Source: Streptomyces mobaraensis (GTDB taxonomy: Bacteria; Actinomycetota; Actinomycetes; Streptomycetales; Streptomycetaceae). From it: a DNA stretch of 64,000 nucleotides. The notes below the pieces were generated by a model. It did not search any database. It saw only the letters and a list, made by a program, of their open reading frames with translations, and was not told the DNA's origin. Numbering within the stretch: position 1 is the first letter of the stretch; every line of letters starts with the position of its first letter. The DNA lies in the NCBI RefSeq assembly GCF_020099395.1, contig NZ_CP083590.1, forward strand, positions 5,642,001-5,706,000, in the 5' to 3' direction. This document shows, piece after piece, positions 11,170 through 32,805 of the stretch. A program made the translations under genes and the position numbers.

Positions 11170-15718
<4,549 letters not shown>

Positions 15719-24101: not shown

Positions 24102-24758
24102 TCAGCCCTTGATGGAGAAGAAGAGGGTGTCCTGCGTGTACCAGTCGAGCCGCTCGCGGGCCCATATCCAGTTGTCGTGTTCGTCGTCCAGCATCTCGAT
24201 CAGAATCGTGACGTCGTGGGTGAGACCGGGGTCGATCCGGTCCAGGACCCGGCGGTAGGCGTCGGCGGCGGGCTTGGCCTTGGCCAGCGGGAGCCGGCCG
24301 AAGTCCGGGGATCCGTCCGTGGGGTAGGGGAGGGGGAAGGGGATTCCGTCGGGCGGTCCGGCGAAGAGGTATCCGTAGGGCAGCAGGTCGGCGTCCACGC
24401 CCAGGCGGCGGAGCTCGTCGTCCAGCAGGCCGAAGAAGGTGGAGGGCTTGGAGTACGAGCCCAGGTCGGCGGGGTCGGAGGCGTTGGCGTCGATGATGTG
24501 CTGGAGCGCGCTGTAGTAGGCGTTGGCCGCGTACTCGGCCGTCGAGTCGGCGTGGCCGGCTATGAGGTGGTCGAGGGCATCGGGGATGGTCAGGCCCCAG
24601 TCGATGTCCTGTTGTTCGAGCCGGAGTTGGTCGGCCTCCGCGCATGCGCGCATGTCGGCGAGGACGTCGCGCTGGTCGGCGGAGAGGCTGTCCCCGGCGC
24701 CGAGGAAGGCCACGACGTGCGCTTGGTCCGCGGTGCTGTACGAGATGATCCGGCTCAT
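24102..24758 (-). CDS. Uncharacterised cytoplasmic protein
   Basis: This 218-aa acidic protein begins MSRIISYSTADQAHVVAFLG. A helical middle (RDVLADMRACAEADQLRLEQ) and a C-terminal part rich in Asp and aromatics (DDEHDNWIWARERLDWYTQD) follow. No signal, membrane segment or catalytic motif is evident. Several homologues of this general look exist in Streptomyces, but I cannot name the family safely. ATG 24758 has AGGA about 8 nt upstream; an in-frame start 30 nt earlier is possible. It is convergent with the upstream gene. Confidence 0.65.
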   Translation of the reverse strand: MSRIISYSTADQAHVVAFLGAGDSLSADQRDVLADMRACAEADQLRLEQQDIDWGLTIPDALDHLIAGHADSTAEYAANAYYSALQHIIDANASDPADLGSYSKPSTFFGLLDDELRRLGVDADLLPYGYLFAGPPDGIPFPLPYPTDGSPDFGRLPLAKAKPAADAYRRVLDRIDPGLTHDVTILIEMLDDEHDNWIWARERLDWYTQDTLFFSIKG

Positions 24759-24892
24759 GGTCGTCATCCTGTCACCCACCACTGACATCGCGGGCGTCAG
24801 GCGGGGGCGGGTGGCCGCTGAGCAGTTGGCTGACCGTGGGGTTATCGTTCTCGCCGTCCGGACGGGGGAGCGACAACGGGGGGCAGAGAGGC

Positions 24893-25478: not shown

Positions 25479-26147
25479 TCACGTCTCCGCCGACCGTGCC
25501 ACCACCTCGCTGAACACCACCCGCGCGTCCTCCGTGTACACCCCCACGCTCCCTTTCAGATAAGGGCGTTCGTGGTCCTCGTACGCGACGAGGCCGCGGC
25601 CGTCGACGCTGATCTCCATGCGGGCGCCGCGCTGGGCGACGCGGACGTCCGAGGTGCGGCCGACGGGGAAGGACTCGCCGCCGGTGGCGAGGAAGCGCTG
25701 GCCGCCGGGGTAGGCGGGGTCGCGTTTGCCGAGCTCCCAGCCGTTGGGCTTGAGGGTGATGTAGTAGAAGTGCTCGGGGTCGGTGTAGGCCCAGACCAGC
25801 CAGGGCACTTCCCACGGGTTCGGCTTGGGGGTGCGGAGTTGGGCGACGGTGCGCATGCGGGCCTCGTAGTCCACGTTCTCGTACGTCGCCGTGGAGACGA
25901 CGAGGCCGGCGTGGGTCTCTTCGGGGCGCCGGGCCGGCTTGGGGGAGAGGGCCAGGCCGTCGTGGCGGCCGACGGTGGTGCCGTGGCCGTCGAAGACCGC
26001 CCGCCACGGGCCGTGGACCGTGCCCTCGGCCCACGGCCGTTCCGGCGCGCCCCCGCCGCCCCACAGGGCGTCCGCCGCGAAACCGAGGCCGACGAGCACG
26101 GCGACGGCGAGGGCGGCGAGGGCGAGCTGCCGGTGAACTCTGCTCAT
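25479..26147 (-). CDS. Secreted jelly-roll-like protein linked to wecB
   Basis: This 222-aa protein has an uncleaved or cleaved signal helix at residues 7-27, then a beta-sandwich-like domain. Motifs include TAAYENVDYEAR-like strands (STATYENVDYEARMRT), DPEHFYYITLKPNGWELGK, ARMEISVDGRGLV and YLKGSVGVYTEDARVVFSEV. The pattern resembles DUF1080/LamG folds that bind or act on sugars, but no catalytic residue is certain. ATG 26147 overlaps the wecB stop by 4 nt, so it is translationally coupled to the UDP-ManNAc-forming enzyme. An extracellular role in polysaccharide binding is inferred. Confidence 0.75.
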   Translation of the reverse strand: MSRVHRQLALAALAVAVLVGLGFAADALWGGGGAPERPWAEGTVHGPWRAVFDGHGTTVGRHDGLALSPKPARRPEETHAGLVVSTATYENVDYEARMRTVAQLRTPKPNPWEVPWLVWAYTDPEHFYYITLKPNGWELGKRDPAYPGGQRFLATGGESFPVGRTSDVRVAQRGARMEISVDGRGLVAYEDHERPYLKGSVGVYTEDARVVFSEVVARSAET

Positions 26148-27400
26148 GCCGTCGAGTATGACCCCGGACCCTCGGGAAGGCGGGCGATCACCGGATCGGT
26201 GGACTGATCGGTGGACGGGAGGCCCGTGTCGGTGGACGGCACGCCCGCGTCCGTGGACGGAACGTCCGCGTCCGCGCCGAAGTCCTCCGCGAGCTGGGCG
26301 ATGATGCGTTCGGTCGCGTGGCCGTCGCCGAACGGATTTCCGGCTTCCGCCATGCGGGCGTACTCGGCGGGGTCGTCCAGGAGCCGTTCCGTCGCCGCCA
26401 GGATCGCGTCGGGCACGGTGCCGACGAGCCGGGCCGCGCCCGCGTCGACGGCCTCCGGGCGTTCGGTCGTGGTGCGCAGGACGAGGGCCGGCTTGCCGAG
26501 GGAGGGGGCCTCCTCCTGGACGCCGCCGGAGTCGGTGAGGACGAGGTCGCAGGCGGCCAGGGTGGCCGAGAAGTCGAGGTAGCCGAGGGGCTCGACGACG
26601 CGGACGCGCGGGTGGCCGGACAGCTCGGGCAGCAGCGCGTCGCGCACGGCCGGGCTCTTGTGCAGCGGGAGCAGGATCTCGACGTCGCCGCGGGCGGCCA
26701 GACGGCGTATCGCCCGGCCCATGCCGCGCATGGTGTCGCCCTGGTTCTCGCGGCGGTGGAGGGTGAGGAGGACGCGGCGCAGGCCGGTGGCGGGGTCGGC
26801 GGTGAACTGGCTCTGACCGGTGCCTCGTTCGAGTACCCAGAGGAGGTTGTCGATGACCGTGTTGCCGGTGGTGAAGACCTCCGAGGCGGGCACCCCTTCG
26901 GCCGTGAGGTGGTGGGCGGCGCGCGGCGTCGGGGCGAAGTGCCAGCGGGCCACCCGGCCGATGAGCCGCCGGTTGAGCTCCTCGGGGAACGGGTTGTCGA
27001 GGACGCCGGTGCGCAGCCCCGCCTCGACGTGGGCGACCGGCACGTGCTCGTAGAAGGCGGCGAGCGCGCCGGTGAGGGCGGTGGTGGTGTCGCCCTGGAC
27101 GAGGACGACGTCCGGGCGCAGGCCGCGGACCACCTCGCCGAGGCCGTCCACGAGCCGGGCGGTGAGGGTGGACAGCTCCTGCCGGTCGCGCATGACGTCG
27201 AGTTCCGTGCGGTCGGGCACTTGGAGCAGGTCCAGCATCTGGTGGAGCATCTCGCGGTGCTGCCCGGTGGTCACGACGAGGGGTTCGAACAGCGGTGAGG
27301 CCGCCATGGCGCGGGCCACGGGGGCGAGTTTGATGGCCTCCGGGCGGGTGCCGAGGATGAGCATGGCGCGCACCGGGGCGCTGATCATGTTCGGGGACAC
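26144..27400 (-). CDS. wecB: UDP-N-acetylglucosamine 2-epimerase (non-hydrolysing)
   Basis: The enzyme interconverts UDP-GlcNAc and UDP-ManNAc in the cytoplasm. The 418-aa product has the family motifs GTRPEAIKLAPV, VQGDTTTALTGALAAFYE, HVEAGLRTG, NPFPEELNRR, LTLHRREN, DSGGVQEEAPSLGKP and VLRTTTERPEA. The last ~30 residues are an unusual PSTDxG repeat tail. GTG 27400 has GGGAG 5 nt upstream. It is coupled to the secreted gene downstream and follows the GT2 synthase after 351 bp, so it probably supplies that synthase. Confidence 0.93.
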   Translation of the reverse strand: MSPNMISAPVRAMLILGTRPEAIKLAPVARAMAASPLFEPLVVTTGQHREMLHQMLDLLQVPDRTELDVMRDRQELSTLTARLVDGLGEVVRGLRPDVVLVQGDTTTALTGALAAFYEHVPVAHVEAGLRTGVLDNPFPEELNRRLIGRVARWHFAPTPRAAHHLTAEGVPASEVFTTGNTVIDNLLWVLERGTGQSQFTADPATGLRRVLLTLHRRENQGDTMRGMGRAIRRLAARGDVEILLPLHKSPAVRDALLPELSGHPRVRVVEPLGYLDFSATLAACDLVLTDSGGVQEEAPSLGKPALVLRTTTERPEAVDAGAARLVGTVPDAILAATERLLDDPAEYARMAEAGNPFGDGHATERIIAQLAEDFGADADVPSTDAGVPSTDTGLPSTDQSTDPVIARLPEGPGSYSTA

Positions 27401-27751
27401 GGGTCTCCCTTGGTGTGGGTGGTGCTGGTGGGCGGGGTGGACGAGCCGGCCGCACGGGTCGGGTGGGTGGGGTGGGTACGGCGTGGGGTGCCCGGCGTAC
27501 GCTCCGGGCGGGCGTGGTGGGTGTACGCGCCGGGCGGGCGTGGGGCGCGGGCGTGGCGAACGGATGTGTCGGGTCGGCGTTTTGGGCGGGCAGGCGAGGT
27601 GGGGTGGGGCGAGCGGCGTGGGGTCTGGCAGGCGTGCACGCCCCGCGCCCGCGCCTTCACGCCTGCGCCTTCAGCCCGCGTCGTCAGGCGCGGCATCGTC
27701 GTCAGGAGTGCGTCGGCCTCGCCGCACGCCGCCCTCGGACGCGCGCCGCGC
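27401..27751. other. Gene-free GC-rich gap between the GT2 gene and wecB
   Basis: The 351 bp are G-rich on the plus strand, with a partial direct repeat CCGGGCGGGCGTGG at about 27507 and 27531. Frames here have no family features. It may carry a wecB promoter on the minus strand, but I see no clear boxes. Confidence 0.5.
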
Positions 27752-29134
27752 TCACGTGCGCGCCGTCTTGAGCCAGGTGCGCTTGCCCGTGATCATCCGC
27801 CACAGGCCCCACCACCCGGCGGCGAACCAGATGTAGCCGTAGAAGATGAAGACGTGGGAGAGCAGGACCGCCCGGACGAAGCCGAGGCCCTGCTCCCGCC
27901 GCGAGTACACCCAGCCGTACACGTAGGCCGCGGTGAAGGAGAGGACGTACGGGCCGAGCACCCACATGGGGGAGATCAGCGGCCGTCCGGCCTCGATCGA
28001 GCCGACGGCCGTGCCGGCGACGGCGACCAGGAAGGACACCGGAAGCAGCGAGGTCAGCAGGATCAGCACCGGGCTGGAAAGGTGGTAGAGCAGGTCCACG
28101 GCGGCCCGGGTGGGCACCTCCTTGACGATCAGCGGGACGAGCCCGGCCGACTGGAGGTGGCCCTGGAACCAGCGCGACCGCTGCCGCACCAGCCGCCGGA
28201 CGTCGAGGACGGCCTGCTGGGAGACGGCGGCGGAGGTGCAGTGCTGGTTGGTCCAGCCGCGGGCGATCAGCCGGACGCCGAGGTCCAGGTCCTCGGTCAG
28301 CGAGTCGCTCCACGGGCCGGAACCGTCCGGGCCCAGCAGGGTGTCCAGCGCGGCCAGCCGCATGAACTGCCCGTTCCCGCCCATCCCGACGCTGCCGATG
28401 TAGCGGCGGGCGCTCTGGAAGATGTCGCCGTAGATGACGAACTCCATGTCCTGGAGCCGGGCGAGCAGGCCCTTGTGCCGGTTGTACATCCGCACACCGA
28501 TCTGGGTGCCGCCGGTGCGCGGGTTGTCGAAGTACGGGTCGACCGCCTGGACCACGTGCGGGTCGAGCCGGCCGTCGGCGTCCACGACGCAGACGATGAC
28601 GTCACGGGGGTCGCGGCCGTCCAGCAGGCCCGACGAACGCAGGTGCGCGATACCGGCGTTGAGGGCCGCGCCCTTGCCCTTGCGGGCGTTCGGCAGGTGT
28701 CTCTGGAGCAGGTGCACGGTGCCCGGGTGGGCGGCGCAGGCCGCACGGGCGATGTCGGCCGTGCGGTCGTCGGAGGCGTCGTCGATGACCAGGGCCAGGG
28801 TGTTGCGGGCCGGCAGCGCGGTGATCCGCGCCAGGCTCTCGGCCAGCACCTTCTCCTCGTTCAGGCACGCGAGGAGGAAGACGTAGCAGCGCTGTTCCCG
28901 GGGCCCGCGCGCACGGCGGAAGCGCCGCCGGGAGATGAGGAACAGGGAGGTGTTGTAGACGCCGGCCATCACGATGATGGCGATGCTCGACCAGAGCAGC
29001 AGCTCGTCGAGCGGGAGGCCGCCGATGAGGGCGCCGTCGGTCGTGGACGCGTCGGTGGTGAGCGTGCCGGGCGCGAGTGCGCCGGTGGTGGGCGCGCCGT
29101 TGGTGAGCGCGGCGGTGGCGAGTGCGTCGGTCAT
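27752..29134 (-). CDS. Processive family 2 glycosyltransferase (polysaccharide synthase)
   Basis: This 460-aa membrane enzyme is predicted to polymerise a sugar nucleotide and extrude the chain. Order: a low-complexity N-terminus, a membrane helix at 45-66, the GT-A domain with IDDASDD (118-124), DADG (185-188), GGNGQF (252-257) and TED (280-282), and the processivity motif QRSRW (318-322). Three or more C-terminal helices follow. These are the hyaluronan/PNAG/cellulose synthase hallmarks. No PilZ domain is present. ATG 29134 overlaps the stop of the 66-aa gene. Substrate is unknown; nearby wecB suggests UDP-ManNAc or UDP-GlcNAc. Confidence 0.88.
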   Translation of the reverse strand: MTDALATAALTNGAPTTGALAPGTLTTDASTTDGALIGGLPLDELLLWSSIAIIVMAGVYNTSLFLISRRRFRRARGPREQRCYVFLLACLNEEKVLAESLARITALPARNTLALVIDDASDDRTADIARAACAAHPGTVHLLQRHLPNARKGKGAALNAGIAHLRSSGLLDGRDPRDVIVCVVDADGRLDPHVVQAVDPYFDNPRTGGTQIGVRMYNRHKGLLARLQDMEFVIYGDIFQSARRYIGSVGMGGNGQFMRLAALDTLLGPDGSGPWSDSLTEDLDLGVRLIARGWTNQHCTSAAVSQQAVLDVRRLVRQRSRWFQGHLQSAGLVPLIVKEVPTRAAVDLLYHLSSPVLILLTSLLPVSFLVAVAGTAVGSIEAGRPLISPMWVLGPYVLSFTAAYVYGWVYSRREQGLGFVRAVLLSHVFIFYGYIWFAAGWWGLWRMITGKRTWLKTART

Positions 29135-29331
29135 GAGCGGCCACCGACATTCTTTATCGCGTACCAGAATTTCAGCGAAAGCAGGACGGCGGCTATCGAA
29201 CAGTAGAGCAGGAAGCCGGCCCCCGCCGCCTCCTGGAGCCCTTTCGCGTAGGGCAGGCCCGGCAGCACTTTCGGTGCCGCAGTCAGACCGGCCAAGGGCA
29301 CAACGGTGCCCAGTGCAGGTTTTCCGTACAT
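29131..29331 (-). CDS. Small membrane protein coupled to the GT2 synthase
   Basis: This 66-aa protein begins MYGKPALGTVVPLAGL and has two hydrophobic stretches. The C-terminal one (about 38-58, GAGFLLYCSIAAVLLSLKFW) is a clear membrane helix. GGGGGGAA is placed 5 nt before ATG 29331, and the TGA overlaps the GT2 ATG. I do not know a family. By position it could be an accessory subunit like PgaD in PNAG synthesis, but no sequence similarity is claimed. Confidence 0.7.
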   Translation of the reverse strand: MYGKPALGTVVPLAGLTAAPKVLPGLPYAKGLQEAAGAGFLLYCSIAAVLLSLKFWYAIKNVGGRS

Positions 29332-29704
29332 GGGTTCCCCCCCATTTTCCGCCTCCTGCGAGGCGTGCGCTGGGAACGTACCAGACCTTCGGTCGTACCG
29401 GTCCTACATCAGGGAAGTCATGGAATTCAAGGGCGTAAATTCTTGTGACTGATCGGTAGTTCTGGCAGTTCACGCCGGGGGTGGTGCTGGTGTGACCTGC
29501 GGTCTGAACCATTCACCCGGCGGGAATCGACGGAGGGGGGAGTCGGCCGGGATCGGAAGAGAGCGGTCCGCCTTTCCGGAATTGTAACGAGGGTGTCACT
29601 GATATTCGGAAGCGTATTGACGCTCCGTCGGACGCCCCACCAGAATCTGCCAACTGTCGGCGCGATGCCGGCCATGCCTCGACGGCAGTCAGGGGGGAAT
29701 GAGG
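29332..29704. promoter_or_regulatory. Divergent promoter region of the polysaccharide module
   Basis: The 373-bp gap separates the minus-strand synthase unit from the plus-strand deacetylase unit. TTGACG (29617-29622) and CAGAAT (29641-29646), spaced 18 bp, are a plausible plus-strand promoter. The region is AT-richer than its surroundings around 29420-29460. No gene is seen. Confidence 0.5.
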
Positions 29705-31726
29705 ATGAGAATTTCCCGCAGAGGCCCGGGAAAGACCAGAATTTCGCTAACGCTTTCGATGGTCGCGGCCCTCGTGGGCGGATTCGCGATATCCGAGGGT
29801 TCCGGAGCCGCCGGTGCGCCGGCGGACGCCCGGTCCCGCGCGTCCCACGCCCTGCAGGGCGCCGGGCCGGCCGCGCTCTCCGGGGTCGGCGTCAAGGACC
29901 TCAAGTCCTGGGAGTCCGCCCGGCTCTCCAACGACCGGCTGCGCCGGTCGGGCAAGCTCGTCGTCCGGCGGGCGGCGGCGAGCGGGAAGACGGCGGGCGG
30001 TACCAGCGGCACCGGTAGTACGGGCGGCACCAGCGGCACCAGCGGCATCAGCGGTACCGGTAGTACGGGCGGGACCGGCGGGACGAGCGCCCGGCCGGCC
30101 GTCGCACCCCGCAGCACCACCGCGGCCACGACGGCCGTCCCCGCCGTCGCCCCGGCCACCGCCGGGACCCAGGGTCCGGCCGTCGTCCAGCCGGCCGCCG
30201 CGGCCGGGACCTCGGCGCTGGTCCTCTACGACAACACCGGCCCCTACGGTTACCTGGGCGAGCTCTACGCCATGGCAGCCGCCAACCTCGCCGGCCACTT
30301 CGGCACCGTGACCGCCAAGCCCGTCTCGGCGTACACCGCGGGCATGGTCAACCAGTACACGGCCACGGTGTACATGGGCTCGACGTACTACGGCGGGACC
30401 GTCCCGGACGCCGTCCCCGCCGCGTTCTACCAGGACGCGCTGGCCACCACCCACCCGGTCACCTGGGTCGGGGACAACATCTGGGGCATGGCCAACGCCG
30501 TCGGCGTCGACGCCTTCAAGCAGCACTACGGCTGGGACCCCACCAACTCGTTCTACGAGAGCGGCGGCACGGTCGGGAACATCACCCAGGTCACGTACAA
30601 GGGGCAGCAGCTCACCCGGAAGATCCCCGCCGGATACGACGGCGGAGTGCTGCACCCGGCGCTGCTGACCGGGCCGGGCTACCCCCAGGTCACCCAGCTG
30701 GCCCAGGCCACCGACACCAACTCCGGTGACACCAGCCCCTGGGCGATCCGTTCGGGCAACCTCACCTACGTCGGCGAGATCCCGTTCACCTACGTCTCCG
30801 AGAGCGACCGGGTGATCGTCTTCGAGGACCTGCTCTTCGACGGGCTGGCCCCCGCCACCGCCGAACGGCACCGGGCGTTCGTCCGGCTGGAGGACATCAG
30901 TCCGAAGTCCGACCCCAACGAGCTGCGCCAGATGGCGGATTACCTCTCCGGCCAGAAGATCCCCTACGGGATCAACGTCATCCCCGTCTACACGGACCCC
31001 AAGGGCGTCTACAACGGCGGGAAGGCCGAGACCGTCACGCTCGCCCAGAGCCCCCAGGTCGTCTCCGCGCTCAAGTACATGCTGGCGCACGGCGCGGTGC
31101 TGATGGACCACGGCTACACCCACCAGTACAGCAACGTGAACAACCCGTACAGCGGAGTCACCGGCGACGACTTCGAGTTCTTCCGCGCGCACGTCGACGC
31201 GTCCGACAACGTGATCTACGACGGGCCGCCCGCCGAGGACTCAACTCTCTGGGCGCAAACGCGAGTTACGTCCGCCCTCGCGGGCTTCGCGGCGGCCGGG
31301 CTGCCGAAGCCGACGCTGTGGACAACGCCACACTACGCGGCCTCCGCGACCGACTACCGTGTCGTCGGTCAGAACTTCTCCGCGCGTCTGGAGAGAACCT
31401 TGTACTTCGCAGGAACCCTGCCCGGCACCACCGTGAACGCCGGCCGGTACATCGGCCAGTTCTTCCCGTACGCCGTGAAGGACGTCTACGGCACCACGGT
31501 CCTGCCGGAGAACCTCGGCAACTACGAGCCCGAGCCGTACAACAACCACCCGGCCCGGCTCCCCGCCGACCTGGTCGCCTCCGCCAAGGCCAACCTGGCC
31601 GTCCGCGACGGCGTGGCCAGCTTCTTCTACCACCCGTACTACGGGACGGCCCCGCTCCAGCAGACGGTGGACGGCATCCGCGCCCTCGGGTACACCTTCG
31701 TCGGCCCCACGGACCTGAACCAGTGA
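29705..31726 (+). CDS. Exported DUF2334 polysaccharide-deacetylase-like protein
   Basis: This 673-aa exported protein has a signal peptide at 1-35 and an 80-residue disordered region with GTSGTGSTGGT repeats. An N-terminal Rossmann-like half starts at SALVLYDNTGPYGYLGELY. The DUF2334 domain carries RLEDISP (Asp397), DHGYTHQ (His469, His473), TPHYAAS (His543) and FFYHPYYG, the metal-site pattern of NodB-like deacetylases. ATG 29705 is preferred over 29699 because GGGGGG lies 7 nt upstream. Its stop overlaps the GH113-like start. I infer N-deacetylation or modification of the nascent polymer outside the cell. Confidence 0.85.
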   Translation: MRISRRGPGKTRISLTLSMVAALVGGFAISEGSGAAGAPADARSRASHALQGAGPAALSGVGVKDLKSWESARLSNDRLRRSGKLVVRRAAASGKTAGGTSGTGSTGGTSGTSGISGTGSTGGTGGTSARPAVAPRSTTAATTAVPAVAPATAGTQGPAVVQPAAAAGTSALVLYDNTGPYGYLGELYAMAAANLAGHFGTVTAKPVSAYTAGMVNQYTATVYMGSTYYGGTVPDAVPAAFYQDALATTHPVTWVGDNIWGMANAVGVDAFKQHYGWDPTNSFYESGGTVGNITQVTYKGQQLTRKIPAGYDGGVLHPALLTGPGYPQVTQLAQATDTNSGDTSPWAIRSGNLTYVGEIPFTYVSESDRVIVFEDLLFDGLAPATAERHRAFVRLEDISPKSDPNELRQMADYLSGQKIPYGINVIPVYTDPKGVYNGGKAETVTLAQSPQVVSALKYMLAHGAVLMDHGYTHQYSNVNNPYSGVTGDDFEFFRAHVDASDNVIYDGPPAEDSTLWAQTRVTSALAGFAAAGLPKPTLWTTPHYAASATDYRVVGQNFSARLERTLYFAGTLPGTTVNAGRYIGQFFPYAVKDVYGTTVLPENLGNYEPEPYNNHPARLPADLVASAKANLAVRDGVASFFYHPYYGTAPLQQTVDGIRALGYTFVGPTDLNQ

Positions 31727-32805
31727 GCGCGAAGAAGAGGGCGGTCGCCGCGCTGGCGGCCGCGGCCGCCCTCTTCCTCGCGGGCTGCTCCTCCGACGAC
31801 TCCTCGGACGCGCCCGCGACCCCGCCCGCCGGCACCGCGAGCGGCGGGGCGAGCAAGCGCCCCGACAGCCGGAAGGAGGTCCCGCTGAAAGGGATCACGC
31901 TCCCCGCCTGGAACCGCAAGGACTACGAGAAGCCCGAGGCCAAAACGTATCTGCGGCAGATCGCCGCCACCGGCGCCCGCTGGGTGACCTTCACCCCCAC
32001 CTGGTACCAGGACAAGCTCACCGACTCCGGTATGCGCCCCACCGACGAGACCGCCGACGACGACAGCCTGCGCCACATCGTCCGCCTCGCCCACGACGCC
32101 GGCCTCAAGACCATGATCAAGCCGCATGTGGACCTGAAGGGCGGCGAGGACCGCTCCGGCATCCGGCCCGCCGACCCCGACGCCTGGTTCACGGCGTACG
32201 AACGCTTCATCACCCACTACGCGGACCTCGCCCGCGAGACCGGCGCCGAGCAGTTCTCCGTCGGCACCGAACTCACCGGCGTCTCGCGGGACGGCGACCA
32301 CTGGAAGAAGACCGTCGCCGCCGTCCGCGCCCACTACAAGGGCCCGCTCACCTACGCGGCCAACTACGACGAGTACCGCGACGTCGCGTTCTGGAAGAGC
32401 CTCGACCTCATCGGCATCGACGCCTACTGGCCGCTCGGCGACAAACCCACCGCCGACGTGGGGCGGCTGCGCGAGGCGTGGCAGCCGGTGGTGAAGGAAC
32501 TGGCCGCGTTCTCCGCCGCCCAGGGGCGCAGGATCCTCTTCACCGAGGCCGGCTACGTCAGCCAGAAGGGCAGCACCACCGCCCCGTACTCCTGGACCGT
32601 CAGCAAGTCCGCCGGCGACGCCGAACAGGCCGCCGGATACGAGGCGTTGCTGGCCGCCTTCGAGGGGCAGAAGTGGTGGGCCGGGGTGTGCTGGTGGATG
32701 TGGGACGACTGGCCGGACACGGGGGAGACGCCGAAGAAGCTCGCGTACACGCCGCACGGGAAGCCGGCGGAGAAGGTGCTGCGGAAGTGGTGGGGGAATG
32801 GGTGA
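31723..32805 (+). CDS. GH113-like glycoside hydrolase lipoprotein
   Basis: This 360-aa lipoprotein has the lipobox LAGC (Cys22) and a Ser/Ala/Pro linker. The TIM barrel starts at KGITLPAWNRKDY. SVGTELTG (Glu183) and LFTEAGYVS (Glu275) fit the acid/base and nucleophile pair of GH113, a family of beta-mannanases and related enzymes. GTG 31723 overlaps the DUF2334 stop (GTGA). A hydrolase coupled to a deacetylase mirrors PgaB and PelA, where both activities shape the exported polymer. Its actual substrate is unknown. Confidence 0.85.
   Translation: MSAKKRAVAALAAAAALFLAGCSSDDSSDAPATPPAGTASGGASKRPDSRKEVPLKGITLPAWNRKDYEKPEAKTYLRQIAATGARWVTFTPTWYQDKLTDSGMRPTDETADDDSLRHIVRLAHDAGLKTMIKPHVDLKGGEDRSGIRPADPDAWFTAYERFITHYADLARETGAEQFSVGTELTGVSRDGDHWKKTVAAVRAHYKGPLTYAANYDEYRDVAFWKSLDLIGIDAYWPLGDKPTADVGRLREAWQPVVKELAAFSAAQGRRILFTEAGYVSQKGSTTAPYSWTVSKSAGDAEQAAGYEALLAAFEGQKWWAGVCWWMWDDWPDTGETPKKLAYTPHGKPAEKVLRKWWGNG

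What the first reader, a model, noticed from the sequence alone, without database searches (positions are those of the whole stretch)
25479..32805. Compact polysaccharide module built like Pga but from other families
Six genes fit one pathway. A UDP-GlcNAc 2-epimerase is coupled to a secreted sugar-binding-like protein, and a processive GT2 synthase is coupled to a 66-aa membrane protein. A divergent exported DUF2334 deacetylase-like protein is coupled to a GH113-like lipoprotein. PNAG systems use a GT2 (PgaC), a small membrane partner (PgaD) and a deacetylase plus hydrolase (PgaB). Here the deacetylase and hydrolase come from different families, and an epimerase suggests ManNAc instead of GlcNAc. 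I know of no described actinobacterial system of this make-up.
Basis: partly seen in the sequence, partly recalled or inferred. Interest (0 to 1): 0.75.

Follow-up and report, generated by a model that had tools for sequence, protein, structure and literature searches.

The report
Predicted mannosamine-polymer module in Streptomyces relatives
Six neighbouring genes in this Streptomyces-like bacterium form a conserved, apparently undescribed kit that seems to make, export, trim and de-acetylate a surface sugar polymer, probably built from N-acetylmannosamine, and it gives a testable job to protein families of unknown function.

Summary
In detail: six genes at 25479-32805, three start/stop overlaps. 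They form a real module. In the 80 named loci kept for a related GT2 gene, DUF2334 is nearby in 80, wecB in 76, the secreted protein in 76, GH113 in 71, and the 66-aa protein is recognisable directly upstream in 79, a few weakly; four flanking genes checked turn over. In 295 same-genus genomes, 24 have the GT2 and the same 24 have a full-length DUF2334, 0.3-1.9 kb away. In distant actinobacteria DUF2334 is fused to the GT2 (5 of 16 loci) or to the secreted protein (2 of 16). DUF2334 models as a CE4-like deacetylase with an HxxxH site; the secreted protein as a membrane-anchored CBM66-like sandwich; GH113 is a predicted lipoprotein of a beta-mannanase family. The GT2 is not PgaC-like. Best reading: a synthase-dependent exopolysaccharide system using UDP-ManNAc, with deacetylase and hydrolase. 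The sugar is inferred, not shown. It works like Pga and, by analogy, like Listeria Pss (poly-beta-1,4-ManNAc); it fails the PgaC test, and Pss proteins were not compared. New variant of a known kind.

The parts
25479..26147 (-). SEC: secreted or membrane-anchored protein, one N-terminal hydrophobic helix then a beta-sandwich of the 3-keto-disaccharide hydrolase / CBM66-like kind; likely glycan-binding or glycan-acting
   Evidence: Window copy has no Pfam hit; 29 of 32 members of its alignment match PF06439 at the loose limit E<=1, best 4e-11; AlphaFold2 pLDDT 92; Foldseek best match CBM66 of B. subtilis levanase, E 7e-11, TM by target 0.81
26144..27400 (-). wecB: non-hydrolysing UDP-GlcNAc 2-epimerase (UDP-ManNAc supply)
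   Evidence: TIGR00236 equivalog 436 bits, cut-off 210; solved relatives at E 8e-103 and weaker; one of only two wecB genes found in the genome, both beside a GT2
27752..29134 (-). GT2: membrane polysaccharide synthase with DD, DAD, TED and QRSRW motifs
   Evidence: PF13641 91.7 bits; motifs invariant in 7 aligned sequences except the S of QRSRW; hydropathy peaks at 37-67, 346-374 and 417-435
29131..29331 (-). S66: 66-aa protein with one clear transmembrane helix, predicted synthase partner; no Pfam or NCBIfam hit
   Evidence: found by BLASTP in 64 of 80 loci and by profile in the other 16, 15 of these adjacent to the GT2; 35 database relatives, none with a Pfam domain; overlaps the GT2 start; not detected in three collinear variants
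29332..29698 (.). divergent intergenic region with promoter-like conserved sites (TTGAC on the DUF2334 side; TCTGnTA on the S66 side)
   Evidence: alignment of the window with 13 relatives, both sites invariant in 14 of 14; function inferred only
29699..31726 (+). DUF2334 protein: signal peptide/anchor, low-complexity linker, probable Rossmann-like domain (about 171-390), CE4-like deacetylase domain (392-659)
31723..32805 (+). GH113-family predicted lipoprotein (lipobox C22, catalytic Glu candidates E183 and E275 invariant)
   Evidence: PF22612 199.5 bits; solved beta-mannanase 3civ E 3e-35; invariant residues in 22 sequences

Best explanation
A synthase-dependent exopolysaccharide system. WecB converts UDP-GlcNAc to UDP-ManNAc; the GT2, with the 66-aa membrane protein as partner, polymerises it and passes the chain through the membrane; outside, the DUF2334 enzyme removes some N-acetyl groups by a metal-dependent CE4-like mechanism, leaving a partly cationic poly-mannosamine; the anchored CBM66-like protein binds the chain; the GH113 lipoprotein cuts it. 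Shown: gene content, co-occurrence, fusions, predicted folds, motif conservation. Inferred: the sugar, the linkage (beta-1,4 by analogy with GH113 mannanases and Listeria Pss), the direction of each step, and a role in adhesion or hyphal aggregation.
For: DUF2334 near the GT2 in 80 of 80 named loci, wecB 76, SEC 76, GH113 71; the same 24 of 295 same-genus genomes hold both GT2 and full-length DUF2334, gap 280-1864 bases. DUF2334-GT2 fusions in 5 and DUF2334-SEC fusions in 2 of 16 distant loci (Pfam confirms both domains in the three scanned); in the fusions a hydrophobic segment lies at the junction of the DUF2334 and GT2 parts, as expected for a deacetylase outside and a GT inside. wecB near 13 of those 16 GT2 genes. 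CE4-like fold with HxxxH. Orders differ between clades, and four flanking genes are mostly lost (g32863 26, g33983 23, g21116 4, g24102 1 of 80), so the link is not inherited neighbourhood alone. Listeria Pss shows that a poly-beta-1,4-ManNAc with a named deacetylase and hydrolase exists.
Against: No biochemistry. wecB is missing near the GT2 in 4 of 80 named loci and 3 of 16 distant ones, and may be supplied elsewhere or not be needed. GH113 is missing in 9 of 80 (L098 ends soon after DUF2334) and in one of three collinear same-genus variants (L150), and S66 is not detected in any of those three. Motif 1 of DUF2334 is Glu-Asp, not the Asp-Asp of CE4, and one distant member (L102) lacks both the first and the late His. 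GH113 enzymes were tested on mannans and other glycans, none named there as ManNAc polymers in the passages I read, and one whole clade showed no activity. The 24-of-24 figure treats related species as independent, and absences rest on the 4-7 best candidates scored per genome.
Confidence: 0.6

Rival explanations
1. The same machinery makes a GlcNAc polymer (PNAG- or chitin-like); wecB serves another pathway or only balances UDP-GlcNAc.
For: Many GT2 synthases use UDP-GlcNAc (established knowledge); the GT2 has a weak PgaC/IcaA match, 58 bits; PNAG is known in Streptomyces.
Against: The GT2 scores 285 bits with another family and groups apart from PgaC (long branch); wecB is near the GT2 in 76 of 80 and 13 of 16 loci; GH113 is known as a beta-mannanase family.
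Confidence: 0.2
2. A wall-linked glycopolymer (teichoic or teichuronic type) in which WecB provides ManNAc for a linkage unit, and the other genes remodel it.
For: UDP-ManNAc is used for teichoic linkage units (established knowledge).
Against: None of the six genes is of the TagO, TagA, ABC-exporter or LCP-ligase kind (the rest of the genome was not searched for them); the GT2 is a synthase-type enzyme and is fused to DUF2334 in 5 distant loci.
Confidence: 0.1
3. A galactosaminoglycan of the Pel/GAG kind, with DUF2334 acting like Agd3 (CE18).
For: Agd3-like genes lie in bacterial clusters, some actinobacterial, with a GT and a hydrolase; DUF2334 is also multi-domain and has an invariant Arg (R566) between the HxxxH and the late His, as Agd3 has.
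Against: The epimerase is a 2-epimerase, no GH114 gene is among the six, and Pfam gives the deacetylase only PF10096.
Confidence: 0.06
4. Neighbours by chance or by shared descent only, without a common pathway.
For: Some flanking genes are also kept in about a quarter of loci (g32863 26 of 80, g33983 23 of 80).
Against: Different orders, 24 of 24 co-occurrence and two kinds of fusion.
Confidence: 0.02

Closest known systems
Listeria monocytogenes Pss exopolysaccharide (pssA-E, PssZ)
   Same: beta-1,4-ManNAc backbone as predicted here; needs PssC, with PssB listed as its deacetylase and PssZ as its hydrolase, in the passages seen; that PssC is a GT2 is recalled
   Different: Pss proteins were not compared here; Pss is c-di-GMP controlled and carries galactose; the passages seen name no DUF2334, GH113 or epimerase in the operon
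E. coli NGR (NfrA, NfrB, WecB)
   Same: GT plus WecB, postulated ManNAc polymer
   Different: Only a remote GT2 match to NfrB (hhalign probability 84, E 8e-6); has an outer-membrane part; no deacetylase or GH113 among the genes named in the passages
PNAG systems PgaABCD / IcaADBC, and Streptomyces MatAB
   Same: GT2, small membrane partner, deacetylase plus hydrolase; MatB joins GT and deacetylase in one protein, as the DUF2334-GT2 fusions do
   Different: GT2 of another clade, DUF2334 without a CE4 Pfam hit, GH113 hydrolase, WecB present, S66 with no family hit
Agd3 / CE18 galactosaminoglycan deacetylases and their bacterial clusters
   Same: multi-domain secreted CE4-like deacetylase beside a GT and a hydrolase
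   Different: 2-epimerase; GH113 in place of GH114; Glu-Asp in motif 1
XrtP-associated glycosyltransferase (NF053846)
   Same: Best NCBIfam match of the GT2, 285 bits over nearly the full length
   Different: Below its cut-off of 520; no paper on XrtP found; exosortase not looked for in the genome

Membership tests
PNAG synthase system (PgaC/IcaA type) | Synthase meets TIGR03937 (cut-off 422) | tested here: not met
   57.9 bits; none of 10 hits in the genome reaches the cut-off
PNAG synthase system (PgaC/IcaA type) | Deacetylase with a Pfam CE4 hit (PF01522, number recalled), as in PgaB/IcaB | tested here: not met
   Only PF10096 hit at E<=0.1; the CE4-like fold is shared
PNAG synthase system (PgaC/IcaA type) | Product is poly-beta-1,6-GlcNAc | not testable with these tools
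   No chemistry
CE4-like polysaccharide deacetylase (fold and site) | Beta/alpha barrel of the deacetylase fold | tested here: met
CE4-like polysaccharide deacetylase (fold and site) | Asp metal ligand plus HxxxH and a late catalytic His | tested here: met
   D399, H475 invariant, H471 and H645 in at least 90% of 31 sequences, both lost in L102; geometry not checked in the model
CE4-like polysaccharide deacetylase (fold and site) | Asp-Asp in motif 1 | tested here: not met
   Glu-Asp (E398, D399) invariant in 31 of 31
GH113 | Pfam GH113 over cut-off and two catalytic Glu | tested here: met
   199.5 bits against 27; E183, E275 invariant in 22 sequences; roles of the two Glu recalled from related barrels
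GH113 | Beta-1,4-mannanase activity | not testable with these tools
   As I read one table row, a Streptomyces clade 3 member was soluble but inactive on the mannans tested
Non-hydrolysing UDP-GlcNAc 2-epimerase (WecB) | TIGR00236 equivalog cut-off | tested here: met
   436 bits against 210
Listeria Pss family | Homologous PssA-E proteins | not tested
   No Pss sequence fetched
Agd3 / CE18 | CM1-CM4 with Asp-Asp and CBM87 domain | tested here: inconclusive
   Motif order resembles it but CM1 is Glu-Asp; Agd3 is not among the 50 rows shown, which does not exclude it

The most novel reading that the evidence does not exclude
A new actinobacterial polysaccharide system making partly de-acetylated poly-beta-mannosamine: DUF2334 as a new carbohydrate-esterase family for it, GH113 lipoproteins as mannosaminan hydrolases, and the 66-aa family as a new kind of synthase subunit, with a form in distant relatives in which deacetylase and synthase are one transmembrane protein.
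Probability: 0.45. Interest if true: 0.75.

Novelty: new variant of a known kind. Interest (0 to 1): 0.62.

Why it matters
It gives a concrete, testable function to DUF2334 (one paper in the searched library names it), to GH113 lipoproteins of actinobacteria, and to an unnamed small-protein family. In Streptomyces, surface glycans such as PNAG decide adhesion and pellet formation, which matters for fermentation; a mannosamine polymer would be a further kind beside PNAG and the CslA product. It would also be a source of enzymes that cut or modify ManNAc polymers.

Tried and rejected
Chance neighbourhood: rejected by co-occurrence and fusions. PgaC-type synthase: rejected by NCBIfam scores. Direct homology to NfrB beyond the GT2 fold: weak. 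Sequence search of DUF2334 against solved structures: nothing meaningful. bldA control: no TTA codon in any of the six genes. XrtP literature: no paper. A replacement hydrolase in loci without GH113: genes were listed for six of the nine such loci and three of those genes, from L087 and L095, were family-scanned (abhydrolase, sugar-binding and MCP proteins); no clear replacement seen, the other genes were not scanned. The two strong phylum-level DUF2334 hits without a GT2 match: the gene of G121 ends 1 kb from a contig end; in G189 none of the six profiles matched an ORF in the 12 kb fetched. Agd3 or PelA folds did not show among the 50 rows listed, which shows nothing either way. The own-genome paralogues (3.08 and 5.03 Mb) showed no DUF2334 in the 17-19 kb fetched, so they are not second copies. 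One search was an idle query of a 20-residue stretch and told nothing.
Full report
Observation. SEC/wecB, GT2/S66 and GH113/DUF2334 each overlap by four bases. The window lies at 5,642,001-5,706,000 of contig 1 of a 7.67 Mb genome; the closest named relatives of its GT2 are from Streptomyces (S. huiliensis, 93% in the best segment).

Is it a module? In 61 genomes (own plus 60 relatives) a first search found five close GT2 orthologues (74-87% identity), all with S66, wecB and DUF2334 and, in the longer fetches, SEC and GH113; a sixth (45%, G006) has DUF2334-GH113-GT2-wecB-SEC in one direction, without a detected S66. From that table 70 of 80 hold all of GT2, DUF2334, wecB, SEC and GH113. With BLASTP on ORFs S66 is found in 64 and with a profile in the other 16; 15 of these lie directly upstream of the GT2, some with weak scores (E up to 5e-4), while the sixteenth (L102) is weak and not adjacent. 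By record titles the hosts are 61 Streptomycetaceae-type loci and 19 others (Actinomadura, Actinocorallia, Planomonospora, Planobispora, Spirillospora, one Solirubrobacterales MAG). Four flanking genes of the window that I checked are kept in 26, 23, 4 and 1 of 80 loci; some loci are cut by contig ends. Gene order varies: GH113 is turned round in nine Actinomadura loci, and parts are rearranged in Planomonospora and its kin.

Wider samples. In 295 same-genus genomes 24 have the GT2 (E at most 1e-100), and the 24 genomes with a DUF2334 hit of at least 160 bits are exactly the same ones; each pair is on one contig, 280 to 1864 bases apart. Six other genomes have only weak DUF2334 hits. Shared descent makes these counts less independent than they look, and the tool scored only the best few candidates per genome. 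Of the 24, the two divergent loci that I fetched beside G006 show DUF2334, GT2, wecB and SEC in one direction, with GH113 in one of the two and S66 in neither. In 396 genomes across the phylum, 17 (16 besides the own) have a GT2 relative at E at most 1e-30 and 40 have DUF2334 at E at most 1e-10; of 11 with more than 160 bits (the own included), 9 lie beside such a GT2. The two exceptions are one gene about 1 kb from a contig end (G121) and one with no recognised partner (G189). The other 29 of the 40 have weaker, mostly partial DUF2334 hits of other kinds.

Fusions. Around the 16 distant GT2 genes, wecB is near in 13 and DUF2334 in 8. In five loci (L125-L129) DUF2334 and GT2 are one open frame of 949-1209 aa, with a hydrophobic segment near the N-terminus and one at the junction, as expected for a deacetylase outside and a GT inside. 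In two (L130, L133) DUF2334 and a SEC-like domain are one protein; in L131 they lie side by side in overlapping frames. Pfam confirms the two domains in the three fusions scanned, L126, L129 and L133. These fusions are the strongest evidence that the three proteins act on one product. The five DUF2334-GT2 fusions come from one family (f38) and the two DUF2334-SEC fusions from another (f29), so they may be two events. The other eight distant loci show no DUF2334; of the six module parts six of them show only wecB and GT2, as does one paralogue of the own genome.

Which sugar? wecB is near the GT2 in 76 of 80 and 13 of 16 loci, and the genome has just two wecB genes, each beside a GT2. GH113 enzymes with shown activity are beta-1,4-mannanases in the paper seen (passages); as I read one table row, a Streptomyces member was soluble without activity on the mannans tested, and a whole other clade showed none. 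Both point, without proof, to a ManNAc or mannosamine polymer. Listeria makes beta-1,4-ManNAc chains, with PssB listed as deacetylase and PssZ as hydrolase (passages), and E. coli NGR is postulated to be a WecB-dependent ManNAc polymer (passages).

Literature seen. Passages of PMC8669472, PMC6307706, PMC5972031, PMC5039582, PMC9032380, PMC11439720 and PMC7112168; abstract and passages of PMC13390465; passages and two sections of PMC7229062; others as search listings only. Searches for DUF2334, Streptomyces with ManNAc, poly-ManNAc, GH113 with exopolysaccharide, and the epimerase with a deacetylase gave no paper that, from its listing, describes this module; the lists show only the top 15 of 256 and of 38 papers, and the library holds open-licence papers only.

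Verdict. It is a conserved synthase-dependent polysaccharide module of a make-up I did not find described: new variant of a known kind, with DUF2334, GH113 and S66 given a testable shared role.

Noticed in passing
L025 (G000:C1:5020000-5039000): A second GT2+wecB pair in the same genome without DUF2334, beside a response-regulator-like gene and, by eye, mreB- and ndk-like genes (names recalled). Similar pairs occur in other genomes (L009, L013-L015).
   Followed up: partly
L024 (G000:C1:3072000-3089000): A third GT2 of the same clade with none of the other five module genes detected nearby.
   Followed up: no
L102:1351-2103 and 11373-12014; L131:10144-10890: Response-regulator-like genes next to the module in a Solirubrobacterales MAG and in a distant genome; possible control of the polymer (read by eye).
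   Followed up: no
L099:9294-12885: A Planomonospora locus carries two DUF2334 genes in tandem after the GT2 and no detected GH113; L095 looks alike by eye.
   Followed up: partly
L028, L031-L035, L038-L042, L045-L048, L082, L097: Many of the closest Streptomyces hits are, by recalled taxonomy, whorl-forming (former Streptoverticillium) species or their kin; whether the module is linked to whorls is untested.
   Followed up: no
window 29332-29698: Divergent intergenic region with a TTGAC site on the DUF2334 side and a TCTGnTA site on the other, both invariant in 14 of 14 aligned sequences.
   Followed up: partly
L126:6274-6411: A 45-aa ORF directly upstream of a fused DUF2334-GT2 gene weakly matches the S66 profile (E 6e-4).
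   Followed up: no
L044 (NZ_PXWG01000046.1): Record named Streptosporangium nondiastaticum has a module laid out like that of Streptomyces klenkii (L046); the name may be wrong.
   Followed up: no
window 24102-24788: DUF7691 protein next to the module, found near only 1 of 80 related modules.
   Followed up: no
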